Source: Xanthomarina arctica (GTDB lineage: Bacteria > Bacteroidota > Bacteroidia > Flavobacteriales > Flavobacteriaceae). From it: a stretch of 64,000 nt of DNA. The notes beneath the pieces were generated by a model that was given only the letters and a program-made list of their open reading frames with translations, was not told where the DNA came from and made no database searches. How positions within the stretch are numbered: the stretch's first letter is position 1; each line of letters opens with the position of its first letter. The DNA lies in the NCBI RefSeq assembly GCF_014638915.1, contig NZ_BMFQ01000003.1, positions 744,001 to 808,000 of the forward strand. Reading direction: 5' to 3'. Shown in pieces: positions 11,201 through 44,792 of this stretch. A program made the translations under genes and the position numbers.

Positions 11201-13471
11201 TATTCATGGAATATTACAGGCCCCGGAGTACTTAGCAGTGAATCTTCTGGCGAAATAGAATGGTATGACATAGCCACTGGAGGCACGTCAATAGGGACTG
11301 GAACTCCTTTTAATCCTATTGGCACAACTTTACTACCTGATACAAGTACGCCTGGAACCTATACGTTTTATGCCGCTTGTTCCGCAGTTCCTTCCTATAG
11401 AACTCCTGTAGAAGTTATTATTAATGATTTACCTACGGCATCTATATCAGGTGATGGTTCTATTTGCGCTGATCCTAATGTTGAAATAACTATAGCACTT
11501 ACCGGAACGCAACCTTGGAATGTAACTTACACTAATGGCACAACTCCTATAACTATTTCAGGAATTACTTCTTCTCCTCACATCTTTACTGTCTCTCCAA
11601 TTATAGCAACGACCTATACTCTAACTGCAGTCAATGACATGAATTGCAACGCGAATATTGCAGGATTAACAGGAACGGCAATAATTACTGCAGAAAAAAC
11701 CTGGACGGGAAACATAGATACTAATTGGTATAATGACAACAACTGGTATCCTGTAGGCAAACCAGATAATAATGACTGTGTTGTTATCCCAGACGTAAGC
11801 TCAGGAAGCAATAATTCTCCTGAAATAGACTTTATAGATTCTAGCACGATACCATTTCCTCCGGTACCTGGTTACACGAGAAAACTAACGATTAATTCAA
11901 GCAGTACCCTAGAAATTCTCGCAGGCAGCTATTTAGTTGTGACAGATGAAATAGATTTAAACGGAACTTTAAATATCCAAGATACAGGAAGTTTAATTCA
12001 AGTTACAGATGGCGCTGTTAACACCAATAACAATACTGGAAATGGAGTTATGAACATGCAAAGAACGGTGCCAGGCGTCAATAGTTACGATTATGTGTAT
12101 TGGAGTTCTCCAACAGATAACGATTTTAACGTAACAAATATTTCTTCAGCAACAGGAGAACTCATTTACGAGTGGAATCCCACCTTAAATGGAGTGACTC
12201 ATGGAGATTGGATTCCTGCCTCTGGAATTATGACAAGAGGAAAAGGCTATATCGTAAGAGGGCTTGTTTCTACTAATCCAGTCCCACCCAATACGGCACA
12301 TTTTACTGGTAAACCACAAAATGGCCTTATTGAAACTCCAATTACAAGAGGAACATATGTTGCAGGAGATTATGACGGACCTGGTAATACCCAAGCTACG
12401 GCATTGGATGACAATTGGAATTTAATTGGAAACCCATATCCTTCCGCTATTTCCTATAGTAGCTTTATAGCTGCAAACCCGTATATAGATGGAGCAATTT
12501 ATTTATGGACCCATCAAGCAGCTCCAAGCGCCATTGACAGCCCATTCTATTATGATTTTGTTTATAATTATGGCGATGATTATATTGACAACAATTACAC
12601 AGGATCAAATCCGCCAGGTTTTAATGGAGATATTGCAGCTGGACAGGCCTTTTTTGTTCTCATGTTAGACAGTCCTATTGCAGCTGTTTCAGAAAACATC
12701 GTTTTTAATAACACCATGCGTAATCAAACGTTAGACAATGGTCAGTTTTATAAATTAAATGAAGCCAACGAAAATTTCACGGAAATAGAACGCCATAGAA
12801 TTTGGTTAGATTTAATAACTCCAAATGAAATTGCGACTTCCATACTTGTTGGATATATAGAAGGCGCAACAAATAACAAGGATCGTTTATTTGATGGCCA
12901 TGAATTTGCTGGGTCATCAGTTAGTTTTTATTCTTTAATAGGTGAAGAAAAAATGGCTATTCAAGGAAAAGCCCTCCCATTTATAGAAACGGATTTGGTC
13001 TCTCTTGGGTTACTTATTCCCCAACCTGGAAACTACACCATAGCTATTAACACATTAGATGGTTTATTTGAAACAGGTGCTCAAGACATCTATTTAGAAG
13101 ACACCTTTACTGGAATCATTCACGATTTAAGAGTTAACCCTTATAGTTTTAATGCAGAAGTAGGCACTTTTAACGATCGTTTTGTGTTACGCTATACTAA
13201 TGATGTCTTAAGCAACGAAGAATTTAATATTATTAAAGATCTAAGCATTACTGCTCCCAAAAATGATTACATTAAAATAACGTCAACCAAAGATGTTATT
13301 AAAGACATAGTGGTATACGATTTATTAGGAAAAGTAATATTTGACACTAAAAACATTCTAAAATCTGAAGTTATTATTAATGACCTAAAAAATGCTTCTG
13401 GAACTTTTATTGTAAAAGTTACTTTAGCAAACGGACTTCAAAAAACACAAAAAGTAGTCCTCAAAAAATAA
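8285..13471 (+). CDS. Giant secreted T9SS-sorted protein with GEVED and FnIII modules
   Basis: A 1728-aa surface or secreted protein. A signal peptide spans about residues 1-29. An N-terminal jelly-roll-like region is followed by two nearly identical tandem units of 248 aa (residues 216-463 and 464-711). Each unit has an Ig-like half (GLTYQWQHSDTGG) and a GEVED domain (WIDWNNDGDFND ... GEAEDYTV). A fibronectin III domain follows at about 712-810, then Ig-like and right-handed-helix-like regions. The final 85 or so residues (KDIVVYDLLGKVIFDTK ... KTQKVVLKK) form a Por type A sorting domain, so export is by the type IX system. The function is probably adhesion or matrix; no catalytic site is recognised. 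Met2 is an equivalent start. Confidence 0.88.
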   Translation: MMKKYSHNSLYTFCYLSFLFFLISFNGIGQTVTIGNGTNTGNKLPIVPFFGYSLSEQIIPQTEINNAGSITTIRFYSTGLPIGNSNDWTIHLGHTNKTTFTNNTDWILSGAMTQVFSGTVPANPLAGWMEITLDTPFNYNNIDNLVVAVDENATGYNGNGNAFRIFTPSTPSPTTNSGIYYQSDSTNPNPTSITLAGVRTSYRNQIQLEFTSTTPCSGTPNGGNVTVAPISGNPGSTYGVNATDYTVGTGLTYQWQHSDTGGTPWTNQGTANTSYTALTGLTAPALGVVRTWRLRVTCTASVSSGSSSLGTFTSAITYCTPTNTYSTSYYISGVTTTGGVTNISNTGTGFSGYTDYSALFVSQYPGSNFSLTATHPSSTYGYNVWIDWNNDGDFNDVGENVISTGYLATPATLGDVTIPGGQTPGNYRMRIRNAFLSNPAPACGSFDYGEAEDYTVTVLTLAVCSGTPTGGTVTVNPTSGNPGSTYGVTATGYTIGTGLTYQWQHSDTGGAPWTNQGTTTASYVALTGLTAPALGIVRTWRLIVTCTASVSSGNSSTGTFTSVISYCTPTNTYSTSYYISGVTTTGGVANINNTGTGFSGYTDYSTLFVSQYPGSNFTLTATHPSSTYGYNVWVDWNDDGDFDDPAENVISTGYLATPAALGTVTIPGGQTPGNYRMRIRNAYLSNPAPACGEFDYGEAEDYTITILTPTCVDAPSNIVFLAITETSSVLSWTAASPTPANGYSYYVSENPTAPNFSALPIAPGGSTSGTSVTLSPLTSNTAYYVWVRSECGGLNGQGTWIGPESFTTDPELPVTTGLTICVGDTGTISATAPCTVNTIIDNTIDGNLDGATGGIAIQPEIFITNPDNCDFDDDGNTANYTTINFQVSISGTYTFSSDAPDFDIMGYIIIDPNGLFNAGTCAGEGTNWTWITGDDDSGVGVEAILTANLTAGITYTLITTAFSFSSVLETESYSWNITGPGVLSSESSGEIEWYDIATGGTSIGTGTPFNPIGTTLLPDTSTPGTYTFYAACSAVPSYRTPVEVIINDLPTASISGDGSICADPNVEITIALTGTQPWNVTYTNGTTPITISGITSSPHIFTVSPIIATTYTLTAVNDMNCNANIAGLTGTAIITAEKTWTGNIDTNWYNDNNWYPVGKPDNNDCVVIPDVSSGSNNSPEIDFIDSSTIPFPPVPGYTRKLTINSSSTLEILAGSYLVVTDEIDLNGTLNIQDTGSLIQVTDGAVNTNNNTGNGVMNMQRTVPGVNSYDYVYWSSPTDNDFNVTNISSATGELIYEWNPTLNGVTHGDWIPASGIMTRGKGYIVRGLVSTNPVPPNTAHFTGKPQNGLIETPITRGTYVAGDYDGPGNTQATALDDNWNLIGNPYPSAISYSSFIAANPYIDGAIYLWTHQAAPSAIDSPFYYDFVYNYGDDYIDNNYTGSNPPGFNGDIAAGQAFFVLMLDSPIAAVSENIVFNNTMRNQTLDNGQFYKLNEANENFTEIERHRIWLDLITPNEIATSILVGYIEGATNNKDRLFDGHEFAGSSVSFYSLIGEEKMAIQGKALPFIETDLVSLGLLIPQPGNYTIAINTLDGLFETGAQDIYLEDTFTGIIHDLRVNPYSFNAEVGTFNDRFVLRYTNDVLSNEEFNIIKDLSITAPKNDYIKITSTKDVIKDIVVYDLLGKVIFDTKNILKSEVIINDLKNASGTFIVKVTLANGLQKTQKVVLKK
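8930..10417 (+). repeat. Intragenic tandem duplication, two units of 744 bp
   Basis: Two consecutive 744-bp units (8930-9673 and 9674-10417) encode almost the same 248 residues, starting CSGTPxGGxVTV and ending at the GEVED motif. Long identical runs remain at DNA level, indicating a fairly recent duplication or ongoing conversion. Confidence 0.85.
12929..13465 (+). repeat. Long direct repeat, copy 1 (3' end of giant gene 1)
   Basis: From the codons for YSLIGEEKMAIQGKALPF to just before the stop this DNA is nearly identical, without gaps, to 18441-18977 (offset 5512 bp). Only scattered substitutions are visible. It encodes the C-terminal about 180 residues including the T9SS sorting domain. 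Confidence 0.9.
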
Positions 13472-17000: not shown

Positions 17001-18980
17001 CAATTTCGAAGTGGTTGGGGAGATGGAATTGCAGTAGATAATATAAAGTTATTTGGAACGAGACCATTAACTACCTCCTTCAATTATGATACCTCAGCAG
17101 TAAATGCATACACAGATGCTGCAGCCACAATACCTTATACGTCTGGTAACCCAGCTACGACCATTTGGATAAAACCGACTGAAGCTCAGCTGAATTTATC
17201 AACATTTAATATCCCAGTTACATCTACACTATCCAATGGCTGTACCGCTAATGGAAGTGTAACTGTAACCAATAATACTAGGGTATTTACAGGTGCTACC
17301 ACAGATTGGAATAATCCAAGTCACTGGAAGCCTGCTGTTCTGCCAACATTAGATAATTGTGTAATTATAAATCCTACGAATCCTACTGTTATAAATAGTG
17401 GTTCAGTTGGGAGTGCTCTTAATGTCATTGTTAACCCCAATGGTAACTTAGAAGTTAATGGTACATTACTCATACAAGAAGATTTAGACGTAAAAACAAA
17501 CGGAAATTTTGTTGTTAACAACAATGCCAGTTTGATTCAAATAGACAACATTCAAAACACAGGTAAGGGAACTATAAAACGTAACAGTATAACTAATAGT
17601 AATGACTATGTATACTGGTCATCACCTGTAAGTAACTTTAACATCAGCAATGTCCCAGGGAATGCATCCTATTATTGGATACCAACTATAAACAGTAATG
17701 GAATTGGGCATTATGGAGACTGGGCAGCAGCTTCTGGATCTATGAATATTGGTCAAGGCTATATTAAACGATCTGGTACGAATGGCACAATCACCAGTAA
17801 CTTTACTAATCGCATTAATAATGGAGATATAACTGTCCCTATTACTAGAGGTAATTATACAGGCCCTAATTATTATGGGACCGGAAATTCCACGGAGGCA
17901 ACTAATTTAGACGATAATTGGAATTTAATTGGAAATCCATATCCGTCTGCTATTTTTGCGGATAGTTTCATTATTCAGAATGCGGGCCTTTTAGGTGAAT
18001 CACCTAGCATTACAGGCACTGTTTATTTATGGACGCACGCATCTGCACCAAGCACTTCAAATAATCCTTTTTATGGCGATTTTGTTTATAACTACAACCC
18101 TAACGACTATATAGCCTACAATCTTTCAGGACCTAATCCCGTGGGGTTTCAAGGGAATATTGCATCAGGTCAAGGCTTCTTCGTTCTAATGGATCATAGT
18201 GCCGCAACACCTTCAAATATCGTTTTTAATAATTCGATGAGAAGTGCATCATATGACAATAGCCAATTTTATAGAACAAACCAAGATCCTTCTCCAACTG
18301 AAAAACATAGAATTTGGCTAGATTTAATAGCTCCAAATAATATGGCAACCTCTATTTTAGTGGGATATATTGAAAATGCCACTGATGGACTAGACCTACT
18401 TTATGATGGTTACGACTTAAGTGAAACTAGCACACGATTCTATTCTTTAATAGGTGAAGAAAAAATGGCTATTCAAGGAAAAGCCCTCCCATTTATAGAA
18501 ACGGATTTGGTTCCTCTTGGGTTACTTATTCCCCAACCTGGAAACTACACCATAGCTATTAACACATTAGATGGTTTATTTGAAACAGGTGCTCAAGACA
18601 TCTATTTAGAAGACACCTTTACTGGAATCATTCACGATTTAAGAGTTAACCCTTATAGTTTTAATGCAGAAGTAGGCACTTTTAACAATCGTTTTGTGTT
18701 ACGCTATACTAATGATGTCTTAAGCAACGAAGAATTTAATACTATTAAAGATCTAAGCATTACTGCTCCAAAAAATGATTACATTAAAATAACTTCAGCA
18801 AAAGATGTTATAAAAGACATCGTGGTATACGATTTATTAGGAAAAGTAATATTTGATACTAAAAACATTCTAAAATCTGAAGTTATTATTAATGACTTAA
18901 AAAATGCTTCTGGAACTTTTATTGTAAAAGTTACTTTAGCAAACGGACTTCAAAAAACACAAAAGGTGATTCTAAAATAA
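14034..18980 (+). CDS. Giant secreted T9SS-sorted protein with two GEVED domains, paralogue of the preceding gene
   Basis: A 1648-aa protein with a signal peptide ending near GYGQ (residues 1-35). The N-terminal 400 residues are Asn/Thr/Gly-rich (NNTLTYFRNSG...). Two GEVED-type modules lie at about 405-560 and 558-715 (each with VDWNxN and GEAEDY). An Ig-like SPRY-free segment follows (to about 830). Then comes a MAM/jelly-roll-like domain (about 832-1012, NENFEDGGLGVF ... GWGDGIAVDNIKLFG). The last 400 residues are homologous to the neighbouring giant protein and end in the same Por sorting domain. Surface adhesion or matrix is inferred. No enzyme motif is visible. Confidence 0.87.
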   Translation: MKQSYILLVLTRMLCAKFNALFLLFALLFSSIGYGQDFNVQHIQNNIARTGGTTSFTPVSSTNSAFVLPNNNRKTHAGRTDETDTNLDSDDLSGAVRLTANNTLTYFRNSGSLNTNMKFSSSIWEYTGTPGGNNQFIVRDRLIVNLNGITNNITQAVSGVTNANKCIPFITGIVTNASDDDADSGTAIAYLENATTLRVQKGSNANNVSVYITLVEFTGSNWTILHGDSGPVNADTGSVNLRANSNGTGTPTSVTDWANSMIFTQHRGNMDDNGVDDAIADNWPLMSPGSNNQTVDWTFNSDHDAKNNGNRHFVHVANNPEISVTRFNGNNDNGAGESTFNITSSGLTSINQALIIGTSTSSGNGTAYGRGWRNYQINSPTQAAHWSHRSGNAMNHEIQIVKLYEDYCTPSSTSTSYYIDDFSTTGGTTNITNNNTGTGITSNGYSDYTAQSASQIAGSVLNFSTDFSDRDTTFGFNIWVDWNQNAIFENSERVYASNAYVTGATGNFTIPGATAAGNYTMRIRNDFYITNPNPCSSINRGEAEDYTLRVVPPGTVTYCEPTSEGPEYVYIDDIRFMGTLNDVDNLNSGYSNGYQDFTNLPHAVQAQGEGMNIYYNNESYSGGAHVKAWVDWNKNGDFSDSGELVYDTGTVSTSSATFGVIIPLGTPIGDYRIRIRNNVVSSSSSYDFDSCEDFDYTNRNYSDGEAEDYIFTVIPACNANIVTVIDGDNCGPGTVDLSITGTAGTTGFKWYSSETGGTLLYDDTASTGTWTTPNISTTTTYWVTAYNGTCESYFRTPVIANINPTPTVIFTPSNPIFCGEEAIQITAGGDVEEVVLVNENFEDGGLGVFTNNNDNPNGNPYDGITAWQNETSPYIPNNTEVWSPAISSGLSGNHFVMSTSDVNPPTGNVYQYLQLTTPVDASNMTNLTLTFDMYYSNFGDQIRIQANGGTGWNTLSTYTTSEGIGTRFENQSINLPTSYNSSSSLSIRIQFRSGWGDGIAVDNIKLFGTRPLTTSFNYDTSAVNAYTDAAATIPYTSGNPATTIWIKPTEAQLNLSTFNIPVTSTLSNGCTANGSVTVTNNTRVFTGATTDWNNPSHWKPAVLPTLDNCVIINPTNPTVINSGSVGSALNVIVNPNGNLEVNGTLLIQEDLDVKTNGNFVVNNNASLIQIDNIQNTGKGTIKRNSITNSNDYVYWSSPVSNFNISNVPGNASYYWIPTINSNGIGHYGDWAAASGSMNIGQGYIKRSGTNGTITSNFTNRINNGDITVPITRGNYTGPNYYGTGNSTEATNLDDNWNLIGNPYPSAIFADSFIIQNAGLLGESPSITGTVYLWTHASAPSTSNNPFYGDFVYNYNPNDYIAYNLSGPNPVGFQGNIASGQGFFVLMDHSAATPSNIVFNNSMRSASYDNSQFYRTNQDPSPTEKHRIWLDLIAPNNMATSILVGYIENATDGLDLLYDGYDLSETSTRFYSLIGEEKMAIQGKALPFIETDLVPLGLLIPQPGNYTIAINTLDGLFETGAQDIYLEDTFTGIIHDLRVNPYSFNAEVGTFNNRFVLRYTNDVLSNEEFNTIKDLSITAPKNDYIKITSAKDVIKDIVVYDLLGKVIFDTKNILKSEVIINDLKNASGTFIVKVTLANGLQKTQKVILK
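18441..18977 (+). repeat. Long direct repeat, copy 2 (3' end of giant gene 2)
   Basis: Near-identical partner of 12929-13465. It includes the region encoding the T9SS sorting domain. The copies diverge abruptly upstream of this boundary, although the proteins remain homologous there. Confidence 0.9.
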
Positions 18981-26069: not shown

Positions 26070-28187
26070 TTAATAATCCAATATCATTTTAATCTTAGCC
26101 TTCACTTTTTCTGTTGAAGGAATCATCGCCTGTTCTAAAGTGGCATTTAATGGTATTGCTGGTAAGTTTTCACTACCAATAGTCATTACTGGCGCGTCTA
26201 AAAACCTGAAACATTCTTCCTGAATTTTTCCAGATAAAGCTCTGGCAAAACTATTATTGCTCGGTTCTTCTGTAACTACTAAACATTTTCCAGTTTTCTT
26301 AACCGACTTCATGATGGTTTCTTCATCCAGAGGAAATAAGGTACGTAAATCAATAACTTCAATTTGATCTGTCATTCCTAATTCTGCCGATGCATTCATG
26401 GCCCAATGAACTCCCATTCCATAAGAAACAATTGTCAGGGTTTCAACATCTTCTTGCTTCCAAATTTCTTGTAATACCCAAGCTTTTCCAAAAGGCAAGA
26501 CATAATCTTCAGCCGGTTCTACCGAAGTAGCTCCTTGAGTTCCTGGCACTTTAGACCAATACAAGCCTTTATGTTCTAAAATAATTACAGGATTAGGATC
26601 GTAATATGCGGCTTTCATCAAACCTTTTAAATCGGCACCATTACTTGGATATGCTATTTTTATTCCTCGGATGTTAGTAATCACACTTTCTACGGAAGAC
26701 GAGTGATAAGGTCCTCCACTGCCATAAGCGCCAATTGGTACACGAAGAATCATGCTAACGGGCCATTTTCCATTACTTAAATAGCAACTTCTGCTAACCT
26801 CGGTAAATAGTTGATTCAATCCAGGCCAAATATAATCGGCAAACTGAACCTCAACAATAGGTTTTAATCCCACAGCACTCATTCCAACGGTTGAACCTAC
26901 AATAAAGGCTTCTTGGATTGGCGTGTTAAAGACTCTATCGTCTCCAAATTTCTGTGCTAAGGTTGCCGCTTCACGAAACACACCTCCAAGTCTTCCTCCA
27001 ACATCTTGTCCATATAACAAACACTCTTTATGTTTTGCCATAAGTTCTTCAATAGCAAACAAGGCGCAATCTACCATCACTACCTTTTCAGCTCCTTTTG
27101 GAGAACGCTCTCCTTTTTCCTCCGTAATTGGGGTAGGAACAAAATCGTTTGTAAATAAATCTTCAGGATTTGGATCTTCAGCTTTTAGTGCCTTTTCGAA
27201 GTCAGCCTGTACTTTCTCCTTTGCGTTACTTTCTAAAGTTTCAATGTCTTCTTGAGAAAAACCGTTGTCTAATAATTGTTGTTTTATAACTGGATATGGA
27301 TCTCTAGAACGTGCTTCTTCCAAATCGTCACGATACCATTCCATTCGTACACCAGATGTATGATGATTTAATAAAGGAACTTTGGCATGAACCAAAAATG
27401 GACGACGTTCTTTTCTAATGGTTTCAATTACTTTTTCAATGGCTTGATAACTTTCAATAAAATTAGCTCCATCAATAGAAATAGCCTCTAATCCTTTAAA
27501 ACCTTGAGCATATTCAAAGGCATTTTGGGCTCTGGTTTCTTCAGCATTTGCTGAAATATCCCAACCATTATCTTGCACTAAATATAAAATAGGCATTTGT
27601 TTTAATGCTGCCATTTGGAATGCCTCTGCTATTTCACCTTCGGTAACTGATGCGTCTCCTAGGGAACAAACAACAATTGGCGCATTCCCGCGAAGGCGGG
27701 AATCTTCTGAATGAACAGAAGCATCGTAATCTGGGTGAAAAACATCCTTTGTTTTGTTTTCATCCGCAAAGAGATTACCGCTTTCGCGATAATTAAATCC
27801 CATAGCAACTCCTGTTGCCGGAATGGCTTGCATTCCGGTTGCAGAAGACTGATGTGGGATTTTAGGTTTATCTGCATCCTTTAAACTAGGATGGCAATAA
27901 TAGGTTCTTCCGGCAGAAAAAGGATCGTCTTTTTTTGCTAATAGTTGCAACATTAAATCGTAAGGCTCTAAACCAAAAGAAAGCAACATGGCATCGTCTC
28001 TATAATATGGAAAGGCATAATCTTGAGGCAATAACTGCATTCCTAAGGCTATTTGAATGGCTTCATGCCCTCTAGAAGTGGCATGTACATATTTGGATAC
28101 TTGCTTAAAATTAGCTTCGTATAATTCTGCCATTGCTTTGGCAGTAACTAAATTTGAAAATCCTTTTTTTAAAATATCTTTTTTCAT
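26070..28187 (-). CDS. Branched-chain 2-oxoacid dehydrogenase E1, alpha and beta subunits fused
   Basis: The thiamine-diphosphate E1 of a 2-oxoacid (2-oxoisovalerate-type) dehydrogenase, decarboxylating the oxoacid and acylating the E2 lipoyl group. The 705-aa protein is a fusion. The alpha part (about 1-340) has GHEAIQIALG, YYRDDAMLL and the ThDP motif GDASVTEGEIAEAF...NGWDIS. The beta part (about 365-705) has LYGQDVGGRLGGVF, TPIQEAFIVGS, RVPIGAYGSGGPYHSSS and VVTEEPSNNSFARAL. The ATG overlaps the ilvE stop by one base (TAATG), indicating translational coupling. Residues about 159-168 (SEDSRLRGN) are encoded by an in-frame REP-like palindrome just before the ThDP motif. Confidence 0.93.
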   Translation of the reverse strand: MKKDILKKGFSNLVTAKAMAELYEANFKQVSKYVHATSRGHEAIQIALGMQLLPQDYAFPYYRDDAMLLSFGLEPYDLMLQLLAKKDDPFSAGRTYYCHPSLKDADKPKIPHQSSATGMQAIPATGVAMGFNYRESGNLFADENKTKDVFHPDYDASVHSEDSRLRGNAPIVVCSLGDASVTEGEIAEAFQMAALKQMPILYLVQDNGWDISANAEETRAQNAFEYAQGFKGLEAISIDGANFIESYQAIEKVIETIRKERRPFLVHAKVPLLNHHTSGVRMEWYRDDLEEARSRDPYPVIKQQLLDNGFSQEDIETLESNAKEKVQADFEKALKAEDPNPEDLFTNDFVPTPITEEKGERSPKGAEKVVMVDCALFAIEELMAKHKECLLYGQDVGGRLGGVFREAATLAQKFGDDRVFNTPIQEAFIVGSTVGMSAVGLKPIVEVQFADYIWPGLNQLFTEVSRSCYLSNGKWPVSMILRVPIGAYGSGGPYHSSSVESVITNIRGIKIAYPSNGADLKGLMKAAYYDPNPVIILEHKGLYWSKVPGTQGATSVEPAEDYVLPFGKAWVLQEIWKQEDVETLTIVSYGMGVHWAMNASAELGMTDQIEVIDLRTLFPLDEETIMKSVKKTGKCLVVTEEPSNNSFARALSGKIQEECFRFLDAPVMTIGSENLPAIPLNATLEQAMIPSTEKVKAKIKMILDY
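27684..27703. repeat. REP-like palindrome inside the E1 coding sequence
   Basis: ATTCCCGCGAAGGCGGGAAT is a near-perfect inverted repeat (7-8 bp arms) read in frame as part of SEDSRLRGNAP. Its shape and ends match the intergenic palindromes at 29265, 29417, 42015 and 44773. Confidence 0.85.
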
Positions 28188-29254
28188 TAGGCACGTTCGT
28201 TTTCAACTTTAACCATCCAATTGAAGGGATCTTCAATTTTCCCAGTTTTAATTTCGTTTAGGGTGTTATTGATATCCAGACCAACGGGGCTTTCATTGGA
28301 AACATGAATCACATCGCCATCAAACCCAATTTCCTGAATATAGGCAATACCTACTGCTGTTCCAGTTCCAAAGGCTTCTTCTAAAGTTCCGTTGTTTGAT
28401 GCTTCTTTAACCTCGTCAATACTAATTGAACGTTCAATAACCTCAAAACCTTTGTGTTTTAAAAGTTCTATAACACTATTTCTAGTAATACCATCTAAAA
28501 TGGCTCCGTCTCTTTTAGGTGTAATTATTTTTCCAGCTATCTTAAAAAAGATATTCATGGTTCCAACTTCCTGAATGTATTTATGTTCTACAGCATCGAG
28601 CCACAATACTTGATCGTAACCGCTTGCTTTTGCTAGTTCTGTAGGACGAATGGCTGCCGCATAATTTCCTGCGGCTTTTGCTTCACCGGTTCCACCAGCG
28701 ACTGCTCTAATGTATTTTCTTTCTGCCCATAATTTTATGCGCTTACTAAAGAAAGGTCCTGCTGGGGAAGCTATAATGATGAATTTATAATGAGTCGCTG
28801 CTCGCATCCCGATAAAAGGTTCGTCGGCATACATAAAGGGACGTAAATATAATGCACTTCCATCTTGAGGCGGAATCCAACTTTTTTCTAATGCTACCAA
28901 TTGTTTTAATCCTTCCACAAATAAAGTTTCAGGAAAATCTGGCATTCCCATTCTATCTGCACTAAAATTTAGACGCTCCGCATTTTTTGTAGGTCTAAAC
29001 AACCTTGGGTTTCCCTCTGAATCCAAAGTTGCTTTCATGCCTTCAAAAATAGCTTGTCCGTAATGTAAAGCCATTGCTGCCGGATGTGTAGGAATGGTTG
29101 CCAAAGGTTCTATTCTAGGATTTACCCATTGTCCATTTTCAAAATCGCATATAAACATGTGATCTGTAAAAGTGGTTCCTAATGGAATGTTGTTGAAGTC
29201 TAAAGCATCAACTCTGGATTTATCGACTTTGGATATTTTTATTTCGTATTTCAT
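28187..29254 (-). CDS. ilvE: Branched-chain amino acid aminotransferase
   Basis: Interconverts leucine, isoleucine and valine with their 2-oxoacids using PLP (fold type IV). The 355-aa length fits the longer type II form. Visible patches: ALHYGQAIFEGMKA (about 82-95), RLNFSADRMGMP, the conserved ALYLRPFMYADEPFIG, the PLP-region KAAGNYAAAIRPTELAK with the expected lysine, EVGTMNIFF, and the phosphate loop TGTAVGI. The next gene, fused E1, starts within its stop codon, linking transamination to oxidative decarboxylation of the products. The region upstream has two inverted REP-like palindromes that separate it from the E2 gene. Confidence 0.96.
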   Translation of the reverse strand: MKYEIKISKVDKSRVDALDFNNIPLGTTFTDHMFICDFENGQWVNPRIEPLATIPTHPAAMALHYGQAIFEGMKATLDSEGNPRLFRPTKNAERLNFSADRMGMPDFPETLFVEGLKQLVALEKSWIPPQDGSALYLRPFMYADEPFIGMRAATHYKFIIIASPAGPFFSKRIKLWAERKYIRAVAGGTGEAKAAGNYAAAIRPTELAKASGYDQVLWLDAVEHKYIQEVGTMNIFFKIAGKIITPKRDGAILDGITRNSVIELLKHKGFEVIERSISIDEVKEASNNGTLEEAFGTGTAVGIAYIQEIGFDGDVIHVSNESPVGLDINNTLNEIKTGKIEDPFNWMVKVENERA

Positions 29255-29264
29255 AATTTTTCAC

Positions 29265-29284
29265 ATTCCTGCGGAAGCAGGAAT
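29265..29284. repeat. REP-like palindrome upstream of ilvE
   Basis: ATTCCTGCGGAAGCAGGAAT, 11 nt before the ilvE start. It is the exact reverse complement of the element at 29417-29436, so the two form an inverted pair around a 132-bp spacer. Confidence 0.85.
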
Positions 29285-29416: not shown

Positions 29417-29436
29417 ATTCCTGCTTCCGCAGGAAT
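29417..29436. repeat. REP-like palindrome downstream of the E2 gene
   Basis: ATTCCTGCTTCCGCAGGAAT, ending 3 nt before the E2 stop codon region at 29440. Inverted partner of 29265-29284. Could also act as an mRNA hairpin protecting the E2 3' end. Confidence 0.85.
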
Positions 29437-29439
29437 TAG

Positions 29440-30777
29440 TTATATTTTTCTATTGATATCAAATTGTTCAAAATAATCTGCTACGCGACGCACAAAACTT
29501 CCACCTAAAAAACCATCAACCACTCTATGGTCAAAGGATAAGGATAGATACATCATACTTCGAATGGCTATTTCATCGCCTTTTTCAGTTTCAATAACTT
29601 CTGGGCGTTTTTTAATAATTCCTAAAGCTAGAATAGCTACTTCTGGCTGATTGATAATTGGAGTTCCCATGACACTTCCAAAGGTTCCTACGTTGGAAAT
29701 GGTGAACGTACTTCCTTTAATATCTTCTCCTCCTAACTTATTTTCTCTAGCTTTTACGGCGAGAGCATTCACATTATTAGCTATTTCTTCCAAACTTTTA
29801 GTATCTGCATTTTTAACTACAGGCACAATTAAATTCCCACTTGGCAAGGCGGTTGCCATGCCGATATTGATATCTTCTTTTACAATAATATTCGTCCCAT
29901 CTACCGAAGCGTTTATATTTGGAAAGTCTTTAACTGCTTTTGCCACAGCTTCCACAAATAGTGGTGTGAATGTTAAACGCTCTCCGTGCTTTTCTTGAAA
30001 GGCTACTTTATTGGCATTTCTCCACTGAACCATATTTGTCATATCTGCTTCAACATAAGCGGTAACGTGGGGTGATGTGTGCTTAGAATACACCATGCGG
30101 TCTGCAATCATCTGGCGCATTCTGTCCATCTCAATGATTTTCCCTTTGCCCTTATCAAATTGTAATTGCGGAATACGATAGGCTGTTGGATCTTTCTCGG
30201 CTACTGGTTGCGCGAATTTAAAAGGCCTACCTTCTTCTATATAATTAAAAATATCGCTTTTTCTTAATCTGCCCTCCATTCCTGTTGCAGGAATTCTAGC
30301 CAATTCTTCAAAACTGATATGCTGTTCTTTGGCTATTTTTATGATTAATGGGGAAAAGAAGGTGTTTGAATTTGTTGTTAAAAATGAAGTTGAACGAGAT
30401 TCCTCGACTGCTCTCGGAATGACAATTCGCTTCTTTTTTAGTTCATTTTGGATTTTATGAGATTCTTCTCTATCGCTCTGAATGACATTCTCCTTTTTTG
30501 AAGATTTTGCCTCTTCTGAAACTTCAAGAATAGCCATGACTGCTCCAACAGGAACAACATCTTTTGCATGAAACAAGGTTTTTACTAAGATTCCAGAAGC
30601 TGGAGCAGGAACTTCATTATCTACTTTATCGGTAGCAACTTCAAGGATGATATCGCCTTCTTCGAAGCTATCTCCTTCAGCAATTAACCAATTGATTATG
30701 GTACCTTCTGTAATACTTTCGCCCATTTTAGGCATCTTCAGCTCCCACGAAAGTGGAAATCTCTTATCTTCACTCAT
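29440..30777 (-). CDS. Dihydrolipoamide acyltransferase (E2) of the branched-chain 2-oxoacid dehydrogenase complex
   Basis: Carries the swinging lipoyl arm and transfers the acyl group to CoA. The 445-aa protein has one lipoyl domain (about 10-88, EVATDKVDNEVPAP with the lipoyl lysine), a peripheral subunit-binding domain (about 145-185, SPLIIKIAKEQHIS...GRLRKSDIF) and a catalytic domain (about 205-445) with SFDHRVVDGFLGG. Repeat DNA is read in frame at two places: residues about 6-12 (RFPLSWE) and the linker at about 96-130 (NVIQSDREESHK, IVIPRAVEESRS). The linker is a natural place to tolerate insertions. Upstream of ilvE and E1 on the same strand; no E3 gene nearby. Confidence 0.94.
   Translation of the reverse strand: MSEDKRFPLSWELKMPKMGESITEGTIINWLIAEGDSFEEGDIILEVATDKVDNEVPAPASGILVKTLFHAKDVVPVGAVMAILEVSEEAKSSKKENVIQSDREESHKIQNELKKKRIVIPRAVEESRSTSFLTTNSNTFFSPLIIKIAKEQHISFEELARIPATGMEGRLRKSDIFNYIEEGRPFKFAQPVAEKDPTAYRIPQLQFDKGKGKIIEMDRMRQMIADRMVYSKHTSPHVTAYVEADMTNMVQWRNANKVAFQEKHGERLTFTPLFVEAVAKAVKDFPNINASVDGTNIIVKEDINIGMATALPSGNLIVPVVKNADTKSLEEIANNVNALAVKARENKLGGEDIKGSTFTISNVGTFGSVMGTPIINQPEVAILALGIIKKRPEVIETEKGDEIAIRSMMYLSLSFDHRVVDGFLGGSFVRRVADYFEQFDINRKI
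30389..30490. repeat. Two copies of a dispersed GAGATTCnTC...GAATGACA repeat in the E2 linker
   Basis: On the plus strand, ACGAGATTCCTCGACTGCTC then TCGGAATGACA (from 30393), and GAGATTCTTCTCTATCGCTC then TGAATGACA (from 30460). The same sequence occurs in paaH (39607) and in the paaG-paaD gap (about 41430). Both copies are read in frame. Confidence 0.8.
30743..30759. repeat. REP-like palindrome at the start of the E2 gene
   Basis: TCCCACGAAAGTGGAAA is encoded as RFPLSWE close to the initiator Met. It is the same palindrome type that flanks the GIY-YIG gene (32725 and 33088). Confidence 0.75.
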
Positions 30778-30813
30778 TTCTTAATTTATTAACTAAATTT
30801 AGATCTTTATTTA

Positions 30814-30844
30814 AACCTACAAGGTTTTAGAAACCTTGCAGATT
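30814..30844. repeat. AACCTACAAGG...CCTTGCAG hairpin repeat, copy 1
   Basis: An inverted repeat with arms CTACAAGGTTT / AAACCTTGCAG in the gap between paaY and the E2 gene. Other copies are at 35736-35767 and 40531-40561. Confidence 0.85.
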
Positions 30845-31523: not shown

Positions 31524-31898
31524 TTATTTGTTTTTATTTTTTAAGTGTTTCATTAAAGCTGACAACATTTTATTAATTTCAACAAGTAGAGCTCGATTAT
31601 TTTCGCTCTGATCAAAAGTTATATAGTGTCGTAAATGCGCTTTTGTTGTTGCCGCTACACATTCACGAGAACTATCTTTGGCAATCCTCAAATAGTTCAA
31701 AAAACTAGCATCAGAACTACCAGAACCTTCAGCTATATTAAATGCAATGGAATCTGCTGCACGAGCAAATTGAGCTGACAACCTATAATCTTCAATTTTA
31801 GGAAAATCTTTAAGTTGTATATGAACCAACTCGCCATATTCTATAGCTTTTTGATACACTATCAACTCTTCAAAATTAAAATGATACTTACTTTTCAT
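31524..31898 (-). CDS. Four-helix-bundle protein (S23 / 23S-rRNA-intervening-sequence family), copy 1
   Basis: A 124-aa protein of the TIGR02436-type family first found in intervening sequences of 23S rRNA. Diagnostic pattern: FEELIVYQKAIEYG, LSAQFARAADSIAFNIAEGS (about 41-60), FLNYLRIAKDSSRECVA, and a C-terminal KMLSALMKHLK helix. It has no enzyme motif. The family forms homopentameric helix bundles and is related to the Avd accessory protein of diversity-generating retroelements. Here it sits between paaY and the enoyl-CoA hydratase, with degenerate inverted arms on both sides. No link to phenylacetate metabolism is expected; it looks like a passenger. Confidence 0.88.
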   Translation of the reverse strand: MKSKYHFNFEELIVYQKAIEYGELVHIQLKDFPKIEDYRLSAQFARAADSIAFNIAEGSGSSDASFLNYLRIAKDSSRECVAATTKAHLRHYITFDQSENNRALLVEINKMLSALMKHLKNKNK

Positions 31899-32715: not shown

Positions 32716-32724
32716 ATTTATGTG

Positions 32725-32742
32725 TTCCCACGAAAGTGGGAA
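32725..32742. repeat. REP-like palindrome, left bracket of the GIY-YIG gene
   Basis: TTCCCACGAAAGTGGGAA, an inverted repeat with 7-bp arms. Including flanks it is the reverse complement of the right bracket (33088-33107) at about 19 of 20 positions. Confidence 0.85.
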
Positions 32743-32789
32743 TCTTTTTTTGGTTATTCACTTTAGTGAATATTCGTTAATCTCTAATT

Positions 32790-33095
32790 TTATAATTCTT
32801 CATACAAATCCTTCCAATCAGGATTTTGCTTTTCTATTAATTCTATTTTCCAATCTCTATTCCATTTCTTTATCTGCTTCTCCTTTAATTTAGCTTCGTC
32901 TCCCATTTCATAATATTCAAAATAAACCAACTTGTCTAAATTATACCTTGCTGAAAAAGTACTTGGATGAGCTTTCTTTTTATGTTGATAAATTCTTTTC
33001 TTTAATTGTCCAGTTTTACCAACATAAATTACACCTCTGGGTTTATTAGTTATTATGTAGACACAATGCTTCATTTTAATATTTGAGATTCCCAC
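32790..33095 (-). CDS. Small GIY-YIG nuclease family protein
   Basis: A 101-aa single-domain protein. The GIY-YIG core shows as CVYIITNKPRGVIYVGKTG (about 12-30; the motif here is VYI...IYVG), followed by LKKRIYQHKK with the conserved Arg, and a helix with LVYFEYYEMGDEAKLKEKQI that contains the expected catalytic Glu. Such UPF0213/UvrC-N-like mini-nucleases are common and patchy in Bacteroidetes. They are related to the catalytic domain of homing endonucleases, but the physiological role is unknown. The gene lies inside the paa operon between paaZ and a crotonase gene. It is bracketed by inverted REP-like palindromes; the right one overlaps its first codons. Start MGISNIKMKH at 33095 or Met8 (33074). 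Confidence 0.9.
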   Translation of the reverse strand: MGISNIKMKHCVYIITNKPRGVIYVGKTGQLKKRIYQHKKKAHPSTFSARYNLDKLVYFEYYEMGDEAKLKEKQIKKWNRDWKIELIEKQNPDWKDLYEEL

Positions 33096-33107
33096 TTTCG
33101 TGGAAAT
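33088..33107. repeat. REP-like palindrome, right bracket of the GIY-YIG gene
   Basis: ATTCCCACTTTCGTGGAAAT. It is the inverted counterpart of 32725-32742 and runs directly into the 46-bp palindrome. If Met8 is the real start, the palindrome lies fully in the leader. Confidence 0.85.
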
Positions 33108-35660: not shown

Positions 35661-35735
35661 TCTAATTTATGTTTTCGAGACAAATCTGATAACAATGGGA
35701 ATCCCTCGAAGTAACGTTTTAATTAATTTTATTCA

Positions 35736-35767
35736 TACCTACAAGGTTTTTAAAACCTTGCAGGATT
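35736..35767. repeat. AACCTACAAGG...CCTTGCAGG hairpin repeat, copy 2
   Basis: Arms TACCTACAAGG / CCTTGCAGGATT. The repeat contains the stop codon and the last eight or so codons (SCKVLKTL) of the VOC protein gene. Confidence 0.85.
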
Positions 35768-36151: not shown

Positions 36152-36174
36152 GAATGCCTGCGCAGGCAGGTATC
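36152..36174. repeat. REP-like palindrome upstream of the VOC gene
   Basis: GCCTGCGCAGGC core with AATG and GGTATCT flanks, 3 nt before the ATG. It forms an inverted pair with 36249-36268. Confidence 0.8.
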
Positions 36175-36248
36175 TTATTGTTGGTTAATCCTTATTCTCT
36201 ATTATAAAAAATAGACTTACCAATATAGTTCGTCCCTTTTATTATGAG

Positions 36249-36268
36249 ATTCCTGCCTTCGAAGGAAT
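36249..36268. repeat. REP-like palindrome at the end of the thiolase gene
   Basis: ATTCCTGCCTTCGAAGGAAT, whose last base is the first base of the thiolase stop codon complement. Inverted with respect to 36152-36174. Confidence 0.8.
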
Positions 36269-38942: not shown

Positions 38943-39323
38943 TTAATTATTTATTCTTTTAAAAATTATAGCACGTAAAGTTGTTATCATTTTTGATAAT
39001 TCAGTAATTAATCTTCTGTTTTCTTCGTCTTCTTCAATCGTTATATAATTTCTTATCCAAGCTTTTGAACTACAAGCAATACATTCATGAGTACTAAACC
39101 AAGCATTACCTAGATAATTATGAAACTGTTTATCGGAACCACTTGAACCTTCTGCAATATTTAATGCAATAGAATCTGCTGCCCTTTTAAATTGTGATGT
39201 CAACTCAAACCTTTCATCCTTTGGGAATTTTTTTGACTGCATATTAACAACTTCTCCGAATTCCATAGCCATCGAATAAATCGTTAATTCCTCAAATTTA
39301 AAATGATACTTTGACTTCCTCAT
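38943..39323 (-). CDS. Four-helix-bundle protein (S23 / IVS family), copy 2
   Basis: A 126-aa relative of the protein at 31524-31898: KSKYHFKFEELTIYSMAMEFG, LTSQFKRAADSIALNIAEGS, FHNYLGNAWFSTHECIACSS. The two share roughly half their residues. Its ATG overlaps the paaH stop (ATGA) and its stop is 13 nt before the paaI start, so the operon is kept tight. Both ends are marked by inverted GAGGTxTGAGG arms. No catalytic motif; probably an IVS-type passenger that multimerises and may bind RNA. Confidence 0.88.
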   Translation of the reverse strand: MRKSKYHFKFEELTIYSMAMEFGEVVNMQSKKFPKDERFELTSQFKRAADSIALNIAEGSSGSDKQFHNYLGNAWFSTHECIACSSKAWIRNYITIEEDEENRRLITELSKMITTLRAIIFKRINN

Positions 39324-40507
39324 ACCTCAAACCTCATTCCTTTTTTATTCATTTTACGTAATAACGGACTACAACGATATCTATCTTCGTGATACTCATT
39401 ATATAAATCATCCATTTTCTTAACACACCAATCGATACCTTTTTCGTCTGCCCAAGCTAATAATCCTTTTGGATAATTAACACCTTTAGTCATGGCATTG
39501 TCGATATCTTCAGCGGATGCGATATTTAAGAACAGAGCATCTGCAGCTTCATTGATTAGCATCACTAGTATTCTCTCGTATATTTGTTGTGCTAATTCTT
39601 TCTTTTGAGATTCTTCGCTATCGCTCTGAATGACAGCATCGCTCTGAATGACACGTCCATTTTCATCATAATTATAATAACCTTTCCCAGATTTTCTTCC
39701 TAAATATCCAGCTTCCGAAAATCGTTTTTGTGTGAATGCTGGCTTATATCTTGGATCGAAATAAAATGCTGTAAATACGGTTTCAGTTACAGTATAATTT
39801 ACATCGTTCCCAATAAAATCCATTAGTTCGAAGGGTCCCATTCTAAAACCTCCAAGGGTTTTTAAGCTCCAATCTATAGTTGCAAAATCTGCTAGTCCTT
39901 CTTCATAAATACGTAATGCTTCGCCATAAAAAGGTCTTGCCACTCTGTTAACAATAAAACCGGGTGTATCCTTTGCCACAGCGACTACTTTTTTCCAATC
40001 TGAAATAATTTGAATCGATTTGTCAAGTACTTCTTTTGAAGTTTGAATGGCAGGAATAACCTCAACCAACTTCATTAAAGGTGCTGGATTGAAAAAATGA
40101 ATTCCAACACAGCGTTCTGGTTTTTGTAATGAGGCTGCAATGGAAGCTATAGATAAACTAGACGTATTAGATGCAATAATGCAATCTGATGACACATAAG
40201 TTTCTAATTCTGAAAATACTTTTTTCTTAATCTCCAGATTTTCGATAATCGCTTCAATGGTCAGATTAGAATCTGAAAGCTCTTTTATAGTATTAACATA
40301 TGAAATATTGCTTTGAATTCGTGATTTTTCAGAGTTATCAATTCGTCCTTTTTCAACTAATCTCGCCAATATCTTTTCTAAAGCTACTTTTGCTTTATCT
40401 AAAGCTGCTAAATTGGTATCGAATAATTTTACTTTACAACCAGAAGTCGCTGCAACTTGCGCGATACCGCTTCCCATGGTTCCACAACCGATAATTCCTA
40501 TATTCAT
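39320..40507 (-). CDS. paaH: 3-hydroxyacyl-CoA dehydrogenase PaaH
   Basis: Oxidises 3-hydroxyadipyl-CoA with NAD+ in the beta-oxidation part of the pathway. The 395-aa protein has the Rossmann start IGIIGCGTMGSGIAQVAA, the catalytic His in GIHFFNPAPLMKLVEVI, DTPGFIVNRVARPFYGEALR and a second C-terminal domain (NYPKGLLAWADEKGIDW). Between the two C-terminal repeats, residues about 286-300 (VIQSDAVIQSDSEES) come from an in-frame dispersed repeat. The last residues (GMRFEV and stop) lie in an arm of four-helix-bundle element 2. The ATG at 40507 gives the canonical N-terminus. Confidence 0.93.
   Translation of the reverse strand: MNIGIIGCGTMGSGIAQVAATSGCKVKLFDTNLAALDKAKVALEKILARLVEKGRIDNSEKSRIQSNISYVNTIKELSDSNLTIEAIIENLEIKKKVFSELETYVSSDCIIASNTSSLSIASIAASLQKPERCVGIHFFNPAPLMKLVEVIPAIQTSKEVLDKSIQIISDWKKVVAVAKDTPGFIVNRVARPFYGEALRIYEEGLADFATIDWSLKTLGGFRMGPFELMDFIGNDVNYTVTETVFTAFYFDPRYKPAFTQKRFSEAGYLGRKSGKGYYNYDENGRVIQSDAVIQSDSEESQKKELAQQIYERILVMLINEAADALFLNIASAEDIDNAMTKGVNYPKGLLAWADEKGIDWCVKKMDDLYNEYHEDRYRCSPLLRKMNKKGMRFEV
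39323..39340. repeat. Right inverted arm of four-helix-bundle element 2
   Basis: TACCTCAAACCTCATTCC, encoding the last residues of PaaH. Partner of 38901-38918; the pair spans 440 bp. Confidence 0.75.
39607..39653. repeat. In-frame GAGATTCTTCGC...GAATGACA repeat inside paaH
   Basis: GAGATTCTTCGCTATCGCTC then TGAATGACA, followed by a second partial copy ATCGCTCTGAATGACA. Same family as 30389-30490. Confidence 0.85.
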
Positions 40508-40530
40508 AAATTCCGTGTTTCTTTTATTTA

Positions 40531-40561
40531 AACCTACAAGGTTTTAAAAACCTTGCAGGTT
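40531..40561. repeat. AACCTACAAGG...CCTTGCAGGTT hairpin repeat, copy 3
   Basis: Near-perfect inverted repeat: AACCTACAAGG pairs with CCTTGCAGGTT, with AT between. Lies in the 66-nt gap between paaG and paaH. Confidence 0.85.
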
Positions 40562-42014: not shown

Positions 42015-42034
42015 ATTCCTGCGTGCGCAGGAAT
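42015..42034. repeat. REP-like palindrome between paaC and paaD
   Basis: ATTCCTGCGTGCGCAGGAAT, a palindrome with 8-bp arms, ends 5 nt before the paaC stop. Confidence 0.85.
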
Positions 42035-42861: not shown

Positions 42862-43212
42862 TTACTTAATATTTTTTATTCGTGTTACCATTATTCTTAT
42901 TAGTTGATCATTTTCGTCTTTTAACTTTGAAAGATTATCCTCTGAAAATAAATTAGCTTTAGATTGAATATTCAAGTTCCTTTGACTTTCTCTCAATTCC
43001 TTTAATGAAATTCGCAACTTATTAATTTTGTCTTTATCTGTACCAGCACCCAACGCTTCTCCATAGTTTAATGCAGAAGAGCAAGATGATCTTATTAATT
43101 GTTTTGCTAAATACTCTCCCGCATAAGAAAGTGGCTTATTGTTATATAACACAATTACTGAAGCGGCAAAATCTTCTAAACGTTCTGATAAATCAAATTT
43201 ATTCTCATTCAT
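42862..43212 (-). CDS. Four-helix-bundle protein (S23 / IVS family), copy 3, divergent subgroup
   Basis: A 116-aa member of the second subgroup of this family: FDLSERLEDFAASVIVLYN, LAKQLIRSSCSSALNYGEAL (about 37-56) and LRISLKELRESQRNL. It has the same helical layout as the copies at 31524 and 38943, but the central motif is QLIRSSxSxxxNxxEA rather than QxxRAADSIxxNIAEG. It is inserted between paaC and paaB and flanked by inverted TTGAAATTGAA arms. Different arms and a different subgroup from the other two copies point to independent arrivals. Confidence 0.88.
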   Translation of the reverse strand: MNENKFDLSERLEDFAASVIVLYNNKPLSYAGEYLAKQLIRSSCSSALNYGEALGAGTDKDKINKLRISLKELRESQRNLNIQSKANLFSEDNLSKLKDENDQLIRIMVTRIKNIK

Positions 43213-44772: not shown

Positions 44773-44792
44773 ATTCCTGCCTTCGCAGGAAT
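44773..44792. repeat. REP-like palindrome after paaE
   Basis: ATTCCTGCCTTCGCAGGAAT, one base after which the paaE stop begins. Confidence 0.85.

What the first reader, a model, noticed from the sequence alone, without database searches (positions are those of the whole stretch)
27684..27703. REP-like palindrome read in frame inside the E1 dehydrogenase
ATTCCCGCGAAGGCGGGAAT encodes part of SEDSRLRGNAP, 10 or so residues before the thiamine-diphosphate motif. The palindrome has the same ends as the intergenic copies. In-frame palindromic insertions are known from Rickettsia (RPE elements); a comparable behaviour in Flavobacteria would be notable.
Basis: partly seen in the sequence, partly recalled or inferred. 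Interest (0 to 1): 0.6.

Follow-up and report, generated by a model that had tools for sequence, protein, structure and literature searches.

The report
Palindromic repeats inside an enzyme loop
In marine flavobacteria, one loop of a central metabolic enzyme has repeatedly taken up short DNA palindromes of several different families that are translated as part of the protein, so non-coding repeats have become protein sequence again and again at the same spot.

Summary
The palindrome is real, in frame and not chance. It is half of an inverted pair, REP1 27774-27793 (NYRESGN) and REP2 27684-27703 (DSRLRGN), 23 codons apart, in the helix-to-strand turn just before the ThDP motif of an E1 alpha-beta fusion. 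It is not unique to this lineage. Among about 189 distinct E1 orthologues the turn is 17-62 residues long and carries translated copies of at least three unrelated hairpin families that are dispersed in the same genomes (a fourth less surely, others by likeness). Repeat types need 74 changes on one E1 tree. Pair alleles are scattered over genera; their palindromes are conserved at synonymous sites (codon identity 0.95 in REP1, 0.49 in the backbone). E2 and a 3-hydroxyacyl-CoA dehydrogenase nearby also carry in-frame repeats. The surrounding cluster looks like a repeat hotspot: 25 of 164 listed copies lie within 15 kb of E1, 1.5 expected, though part of that set was chosen for its E1. In-frame intragenic REPs are published (Rickettsia RPEs; PMC3733652). 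Recurrent uptake of unrelated families in one enzyme turn appears to be a new variant of that known kind.

The parts
26070..28187 (-). E1 component, alpha-beta fusion (E1_dh + Transket_pyr + Transketolase_C), 705 aa
   Evidence: ORF; Pfam; nearest solved chains by sequence are Thermus 2-oxo acid dehydrogenase 1um9
27672..27800 (-). variable turn of E1, residues 130-172 (GFNYRESGNL...DSRLRGNAPIV), between the helix with GVAM and the strand VCSLGDA; Thermus 1um9_A has one residue where this protein has residues 132-164
27774..27793 (-). REP1, ATTATCGCGAAAGCGGTAAT in the sense strand, read as NYRESGN(L); 7 Watson-Crick pairs and 1 T-G pair of 8
   Evidence: the form ATTACCGC..GCGGTAAT without mismatch was found in 5 of 20 genomes, in each at E1
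27684..27703 (-). REP2 (the palindrome of the finding), ATTCCCGCCTTCGCGGGAAT in the sense strand, read as DSRLRGN; 8 of 8 pairs; inverted relative to REP1, CT tails facing inward
29440..30777 (-). E2 acyltransferase, 445 aa (Biotin_lipoyl, E3_binding, 2-oxoacid_dh) with repeat-like stretches at three places
30459..30486 (-). 28-nt repeat GTCATTCAGAGCGATAGAGAAGAATCTC in frame in the E2 linker (VIQSDREES), 1 mismatch from the copy at 39607
30396..30423 (-). GTCATTCCGAGAGCAGTCGAGGAATCTC in frame in the E2 linker (VIPRAVEES); the only match in the own genome to the pattern at up to 3 mismatches, so assigned to a family by likeness only
30743..30765 (-). decayed palindrome at the E2 N-terminus (RFPLSWE)
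   Evidence: similar N-termini in L064, L096, L099, L121, L139 among 59 E2 compared
39607..39634 (-). 28-nt repeat GTCATTCAGAGCGATAGCGAAGAATCTC in frame in a 3-hydroxyacyl-CoA dehydrogenase-like ORF 39320-40507 (AVIQSDSEESQ)
   Evidence: the protein name is recalled from its sequence
29265..29284 (+). intergenic palindrome ATTCCTGCGGAAGCAGGAAT between the E2 ORF and the next ORF, first arm of an inverted pair
29417..29436 (+). intergenic palindrome ATTCCTGCTTCCGCAGGAAT, second arm of the pair
32724..33107 (.). two diverged palindromes outside ORFs (32724-32743, 33088-33107)
36154..36268 (.). two diverged palindromes outside ORFs (36154-36173, 36249-36268)
42015..42034 (.). palindrome ATTCCTGCGTGCGCAGGAAT outside ORFs
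44773..44792 (.). palindrome ATTCCTGCCTTCGCAGGAAT outside ORFs

Best explanation
The palindrome is one half of a REPIN-like inverted pair of a dispersed REP-like family, which has become a translated extra loop of E1. (1) The E1-E2 region and the genes beside it are a hotspot for several unrelated short hairpin repeats (shown statistically, with a selection caveat; cause unknown). (2) Copies that land inside genes survive only where they keep the frame, bring no stop and fall in a tolerant place: the helix-to-strand turn of E1, the linker or N-terminus of E2, a stretch of the 3-hydroxyacyl-CoA dehydrogenase (inferred). (3) At the E1 turn this has happened several times with different families (shown by unlike families and contexts); some alleles, such as the REP1-spacer-REP2 allele of the window, seem also to have spread between genera by short recombination (inferred from spacer text seen only in E1, on unrelated backbones). 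(4) Once present, the palindromes keep their codons longer than the backbone does, so some constraint on the hairpin, or recent spread, must be added (shown as conservation; cause open). The inserted residues themselves probably do little for catalysis (inferred).
For: Loop lengths of 17-62 aa, while mean majority identity is 0.89 in the rest of E1 and 0.52 in the loop. Loop repeats are dispersed in the same genomes: CACCCTGAGCGNAGTCGAAGGGT has 6 matches without mismatch in G312 and 2 in G414, one of each in E1. The 27-nt form of family B has 5-11 matches at up to 3 mismatches in G000, G002, G004, G005 and G413; loop copies are one base longer. Loop types need 74 changes on the loop-less E1 tree of 189 rows; well-supported branches force at least 9 for the pair type, 6 for C, 6 for E, 5 for B. 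One family sits in differing contexts: VTLSAVEGS after GFWYKEAEG in L218 and L229, after GMQYLEKQ in L125. Hotspot: 25 of 164 copies outside E1 lie within 15 kb of E1, 1.46 expected. REP1 synonymous codon identity 0.95 against 0.49. Spacer nucleotide identity 0.69-0.90 against 0.28-0.48 at backbone third positions in the pairs printed. Spacer end plus REP2: 4 of 397 genomes, three in E1, one 3-mismatch match elsewhere.
Against: No insertion event with its empty parent was caught; for the 14 loops examined the nearest short-loop relative is 87-95% identical and the loops cannot be aligned through. The mover is unknown: the one IS200-like protein found in the own genome (L046) scores at the cut-off and has no ATTCC..GGAAT hairpin in the 3.2 kb fetched. 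Thirty of 190 loops, all over 22 aa, show no repeat that I recognise, and classes were set by patterns that I wrote after seeing the loops. Part of the hotspot set was chosen because E1 already held the family; family A in six genomes of the window's genus gives 6 of 66 with about 0.55 expected, but three of the six are the window's own. Over whole loops the synonymous excess of the pair type is modest (0.61 against 0.47). In one search REP1 of L153 (p = 0.10) and L193 (0.08) and four decayed loops do not pass. The structure model was poor (mean pLDDT 45.6), so the place of the turn rests on a sequence alignment.
Confidence: 0.76

Rival explanations
1. The hairpin is selected: REP1 and REP2 act in the mRNA (or DNA) of this operon, for example by slowing ribosomes or protecting the transcript, and the amino acids are a by-product.
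For: Synonymous conservation concentrated in the palindromes. REP1 has Tyr (TAC) where canonical copies would give Ser, and the partner base in the Gly codon is T, which keeps the pair; variant stems in L015 (GTCTCCGC..GCGGAGAT) and in L130/L134 (CCTGC..GCAGG) also pair. RNA folding z-scores -2.7 to -4.4 for four long loops, -0.8 for one short loop.
Against: 80 of 190 orthologues have loops of at most 22 aa; some long loops have decayed palindromes (L188, L190, L191, L219, partly L193). In L066 the best fold does not keep the REP2 hairpin.
Confidence: 0.25
2. A single ancient insertion of the pair in the ancestor of these E1 genes, inherited vertically and lost or overwritten many times; no repeated insertion and no exchange.
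For: Pair-type loops also occur in lineages near the base of the tree (L015, L136, L153, L121, L159); shared spacer ends. Counts of changes cannot tell gain from loss.
Against: Outgroup loops and short crown loops resemble each other (GIQYQEKEGL, GMQYKELQGL), so loss would have to restore them; other repeat families at the same site need their own insertions; spacer identity exceeds backbone third-position identity in the pairs printed.
Confidence: 0.15
3. A hypervariable loop that looks palindromic by chance.
For: The loop varies freely in length and sequence; only 12 of 83 loops of 25 aa or more pass p < 0.02 in the first recoding test.
Against: Like copies elsewhere in the genome; patterns read backwards gave 0, and hits in 2 of 20 genomes and 2 of 397; recoding p = 0.0002 for REP2.
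Confidence: 0.02

Closest known systems
Intragenic GTAG/CGTC REPs (PMC3733652; section on genome distribution and passages read), including Rickettsia RPE-4/RPE-6 and Neisseria dRS3, which that paper files as CGTC repeats
   Same: Short stem-loops, single or as dimers, entirely inside ORFs and read in frame; REPs at about the same site in recB of two Xanthomonas species; no dedicated transposase for the CGTC kind; CGTC repeats reported from Bacteroidetes
   Different: No CGTC head and no CCA tail here; several unrelated families at one turn of one enzyme across genera; the enzyme is metabolic, whereas the paper stresses DNA synthesis and repair genes, and the word 'dehydrogenase' is not in its main text
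REPINs (Bertels and Rainey 2011, PMC3116915; search listing and start of abstract only)
   Same: Two REPs in inverted orientation with a spacer (definition recalled)
   Different: Low copy number, no linked RAYT found; the pair in E1 is locus-specific and coding; spacer 18-43 codons in the alleles
Rickettsia palindromic elements, RPE-1 (as cited in PMC3733652; otherwise recalled)
   Same: Palindromic elements retained in frame in proteins
   Different: Another phylum and free-living hosts; several families at one site. Sequences were not compared

Membership tests
CGTC-tagged REP (CGTC-1) | short palindromic stem with 4-nt loop and AT-rich stem ends | tested here: met
   8-bp arms, 4-nt loop, ATT/AAT ends
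CGTC-tagged REP (CGTC-1) | unpaired CGTC at one end | tested here: not met
   0 of 20 copies examined (of 23 in the genome) have CGTC there
CGTC-tagged REP (CGTC-1) | tail fitting CCA at the other end | tested here: not met
   0 of 20 CCA; 18 of 20 CT, 9 of 20 CTC (copies were turned to the end that fits CTC better)
REPIN | two inverted REPs with a spacer | tested here: met
   REP1/REP2 in E1, and 29265/29417
REPIN | mobilised by a cognate RAYT | tested here: inconclusive
   one weak Y1_Tnp protein, L046, 23.7 bits against a cut-off of 23, no ATTCC..GGAAT hairpin in the 3.2 kb fetched
REPIN | high copy number in the genome | tested here: not met
   23 strict copies in 3.9 Mb; diverged copies not counted
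Rickettsia palindromic element | in-frame insertion in protein genes with the protein kept | tested here: met
   intact 705-aa ORF with all three domains over their cut-offs; expression not tested
Rickettsia palindromic element | sequence homology to an RPE family | not tested
   no RPE sequence was compared

The most novel reading that the evidence does not exclude
Some palindromic repeats of these bacteria have a coding lineage of their own. The 28-nt form of family B (VIQSDSEES) is mostly in genes and the 27-nt form in intergenic DNA (13 of 16 against 0 of 17 in ORFs), and the E1 pair is passed between genera as a loop cassette. Protein turns and linkers would then be a habitat in which such repeats persist and spread, kept as hairpins by selection on the nucleic acid.
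Probability: 0.22. Interest if true: 0.82.

Novelty: new variant of a known kind. Interest (0 to 1): 0.64.

Why it matters
It offers a natural, replicated experiment on how non-coding repeats become protein sequence: one defined turn, many genera, several repeat families, and neighbouring proteins showing the same. It makes two open questions testable: what moves REP-like repeats that have no dedicated transposase, and whether in-frame copies are merely tolerated or kept for their hairpin.

Tried and rejected
Chance palindrome: rejected. Lineage-specific insertion: rejected. A mobile unit with the spacer as part of it: the motif of spacer end plus REP2, at up to 3 mismatches, was found in 4 of 397 genomes, three times in E1 and once elsewhere with 3 mismatches. 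General constraint of the region as cause of the synonymous conservation: short loops show little (0.56 against 0.52, and 0.46 against 0.43). Whole loops of other types show 0.61 against 0.54 (B), 0.71 against 0.50 (C) and 0.62 against 0.57 (E), and the pair type 0.61 against 0.47 (all). Wobble pairs as a sign of RNA-level selection: looked at in the table and judged undecidable, since C-to-T changes at third positions favour them. For the second palindrome of L015 my script used a wrong register and gave 1 pair, p = 1; the hairpin itself is seen. AlphaFold of E1 with 31 close sequences gave mean pLDDT 45.6 and was not used. My pattern for the second E2 repeat found no other copy in the genome.

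Rows dropped. In one search: G001 (no hits), G006 (2 hits), genomes without hits, and G434 (5 hits of type D, because I could not tell which of its contigs holds E1); the truncated place list was not used. L105 was not held and not searched. L180 duplicates L121 and was dropped before the tree. L023 and four other outgroup rows were left out of the alignment for the model.

Full report
Observation. The 20-base palindrome is at 27684-27703 as stated and lies in the 705-aa ORF 26070-28187 on the minus strand. Pfam shows E1_dh, Transket_pyr and Transketolase_C in one chain. In the direction of transcription the ORF is preceded by a branched-chain aminotransferase-like ORF (28187-29254; name recalled from sequence) and by an E2 (29440-30777). 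The own genome, 3.9 Mb in 20 contigs, holds 23 strict copies of the palindrome type. I checked all 23, 18 as fetched loci and 5 in the window: two lie in an ORF of 100 aa or more, this one and L042, where the reading NSRESGNL lies near the end of a 226-aa ORF. The seven congeners searched hold 0-17 copies.

Second palindrome. REP1 at 27774-27793 reads NYRESGN and is the inverted partner of REP2 (DSRLRGN). In RNA folding both hairpins are in the best structure of the window loop, z = -2.9. Canonical REP copies read in this frame would give Ser where Tyr133 is invariant in 31 aligned orthologues (L015, not among them, has Leu). REP1 of most pair-type alleles has TAC there (TAT in the window and L061), and the Gly codon opposite has the matching T. 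The exact form ATTACCGC..GCGGTAAT occurs without mismatch in 5 of 20 genomes searched, in each at E1; with one mismatch there are matches inside and outside E1, and the backward control gave matches in 2 of the 20 (places compared by me with the E1 coordinates).

Orthologues. I compared 212 E1 loops; 190 remained after removal of near-identical entries, 189 after one more duplicate. Classes, out of 190: 80 loops of at most 22 aa; 17 plus 1 decayed of the pair type (one of the 17 is the duplicate); 2 pair loops with the T/A stem (L130, L134); 17 of type B (VIQSDSEES); 8 of type C (VTLSAVEGS); 4 plus 9 decayed of type D (SSRAESRDL); 11 of type E (SSAVE); 6 of type F (SFPSGR); 2 of type G (PPLGARG); 1 of type H; 2 of type I; 30 unclassified. 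Families A, B and C are dispersed in genomes that bear them in E1, with two provisos: dispersed A copies are mostly of the T/A stem, and the dispersed B copies found are of a 27-nt form, one base shorter than the loop copies. For type D the evidence is thinner: 2 to 5 matches in four of five genomes that bear it, all those outside E1 at 2 mismatches, none in the fifth. Types E, F and G rest on likeness in the fetched loci alone.

Tree. On the E1 tree without the loop (189 rows, LG+G4, quick search) the classes need 74 changes, against a shuffled mean of 102; well-supported branches force at least 9 for the pair type, 6 for C, 6 for E, 5 for B. An earlier tree of 122 rows gave 52 changes. Close pairs differ wholly in the loop: L141 (pair) and L138 (short) are 95% identical elsewhere, L062 (pair) and L079 (type E) 95%, L183 (pair) and L189 94%. 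Changes of state do not tell gain from loss, and both trees carry warnings about long branches. Repeated gain is supported where unlike families or unlike contexts occur.

Conservation inside the pair allele. In eight pair-type E1 genes the codons of identical residues agree in 0.95 of comparisons in REP1 with its next codon (NYRESGNL) and 0.76 in the block VHSEDSRLRGN, against 0.49 in the backbone; the best backbone windows of 8 and 11 columns reach 0.82 and 0.73. So REP1 lies above every backbone window and the REP2 block slightly above. Pairing: REP1 keeps 7 or 8 of 8 Watson-Crick pairs in 12 of the 13 rows from L001 to L015 (L193 has 6 and 2 G-T pairs); L219, L188 and L190 have 3. REP2 keeps 7 or 8 in 8 of the 12 rows with the DS motif; L066, L141 and L153 have 6, L193 has 5. 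In the spacer pairs printed nucleotide identity is 0.69-0.90 with gaps ignored, while backbone third positions of identical residues agree in 0.28-0.48. This fits loops that are younger than their backbones, hence exchange, but constraint on the loop is not excluded. Gapped alignment inflates identity: for distant spacers (L121 against L001) the score is no better than for shuffled codons.

Neighbours. The E2 of the window has two repeats in its linker and a decayed palindrome at its N-terminus. Similar stretches occur in the linkers of other E2 proteins, 79 compared, and at the N-termini of L064, L096, L099, L121 and L139, among 59 compared. The ORF 39320-40507 contains a perfect 28-nt copy. 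In 81 sources, L061-L140 plus window, 0.97 Mb, the 28-nt form at up to 4 mismatches lies in ORFs in 13 of 16 cases (9 E2, 3 E1, 1 dehydrogenase) and the 27-nt form in 0 of 17 (Fisher p = 1e-6). These sources are centred on E1 and many of the 13 may share descent, so that p is too small. In a sample of 400 kb of the own genome outside the window one family-A copy lies in an ORF (L254, 263 aa), while the window's 64 kb holds five such copies found by the same scan, plus the E2 N-terminus that it missed; the backward control of that scan gave 1 match in all.

Hotspot. Using the listed places for 16 genomes, 25 of 164 copies outside E1 lie within 15 kb of E1; 1.46 are expected for a uniform spread. 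Nine copies lie inside E1 in that set. Many of these genomes were searched because their E1 holds the family. For family A in six genomes of the window's genus, 6 of 66 are near, about 0.55 expected; three of these six are in the window's own genome, where the finding was made, so that the other five genomes give 3 of 44 with about 0.38 expected. The copies are not independent within a genus. The genes beside E1 look like a phenylacetate-degradation cluster (ORFs; names recalled from sequence). Why repeats gather there is unknown.

Structure. The alignment to Thermus E1 alpha (1um9_A) runs from residue 6 to 131 and again from 165 to 349, with one Thermus residue between. The extra residues therefore sit in the turn between a helix and the strand that leads to the ThDP motif (secondary structure of the Thermus chain recalled). 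The AlphaFold model was too poor to use.

Literature. PMC3733652 was read in its section on genome distribution and in passages. It reports intragenic REPs in many species, CGTC REPs in Bacteroidetes, REPs at about the same site in recB of two Xanthomonas species, and no dedicated transposase for CGTC REPs; its main text has no 'dehydrogenase' and no 'flavobacteri'. Its supplementary list of intragenic REPs was not seen. Full-text searches listed no paper that by title or start of abstract treats in-frame repeats in Flavobacteriia or in E1; several of these lists were cut. The library is partial, so this is no proof that none exists.

Verdict. A true feature, more general and more interesting than proposed: recurrent uptake of unrelated palindromic repeats at one enzyme turn and in its neighbours. 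I file it as a new variant of intragenic REPs. It is not a member of the CGTC family as defined, since the head and tail tests failed.

Noticed in passing
window 39320-40507 (-): A 3-hydroxyacyl-CoA dehydrogenase-like ORF holds a perfect 28-nt repeat in frame (AVIQSDSEESQ), preceded by a second VIQSD.
   Followed up: partly
window 31524-31898, 38943-39323, 42862-43212 (-): Three small four-helix-bundle (S23-like, name recalled) ORFs lie between genes of the same repeat-rich cluster; they may be inserts too.
   Followed up: no
window 30806-30844, 35728-35766, 40523-40561: A further 39-nt family with an inverted repeat (CCTACAAGGTTTTAGAAACCTTGCAG) has three copies in the cluster.
   Followed up: no
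L042 882-1562: A 226-aa ORF of the own genome ends in NSRESGNLHTVKNKNYNQPL, a C/G-type palindrome read in the REP1 frame.
   Followed up: partly
L064 2188, L066 2816, L096 3229: Three carbonic-anhydrase-like ORFs (name recalled) have LRKQES.. stretches made from the T/A-type palindrome.
   Followed up: no
L046: Weak IS200-like (Y1_Tnp) protein, the only one found in the own genome; no palindrome of this kind in the fetched flanks.
   Followed up: partly
G005 C55 76146-76989: Nine palindromes in a row, seven steps of 106-115 bases and a last one of 46.
   Followed up: no
window 12926-13225 and 18438-18737: 300-nt direct repeat, 99% identical.
   Followed up: no
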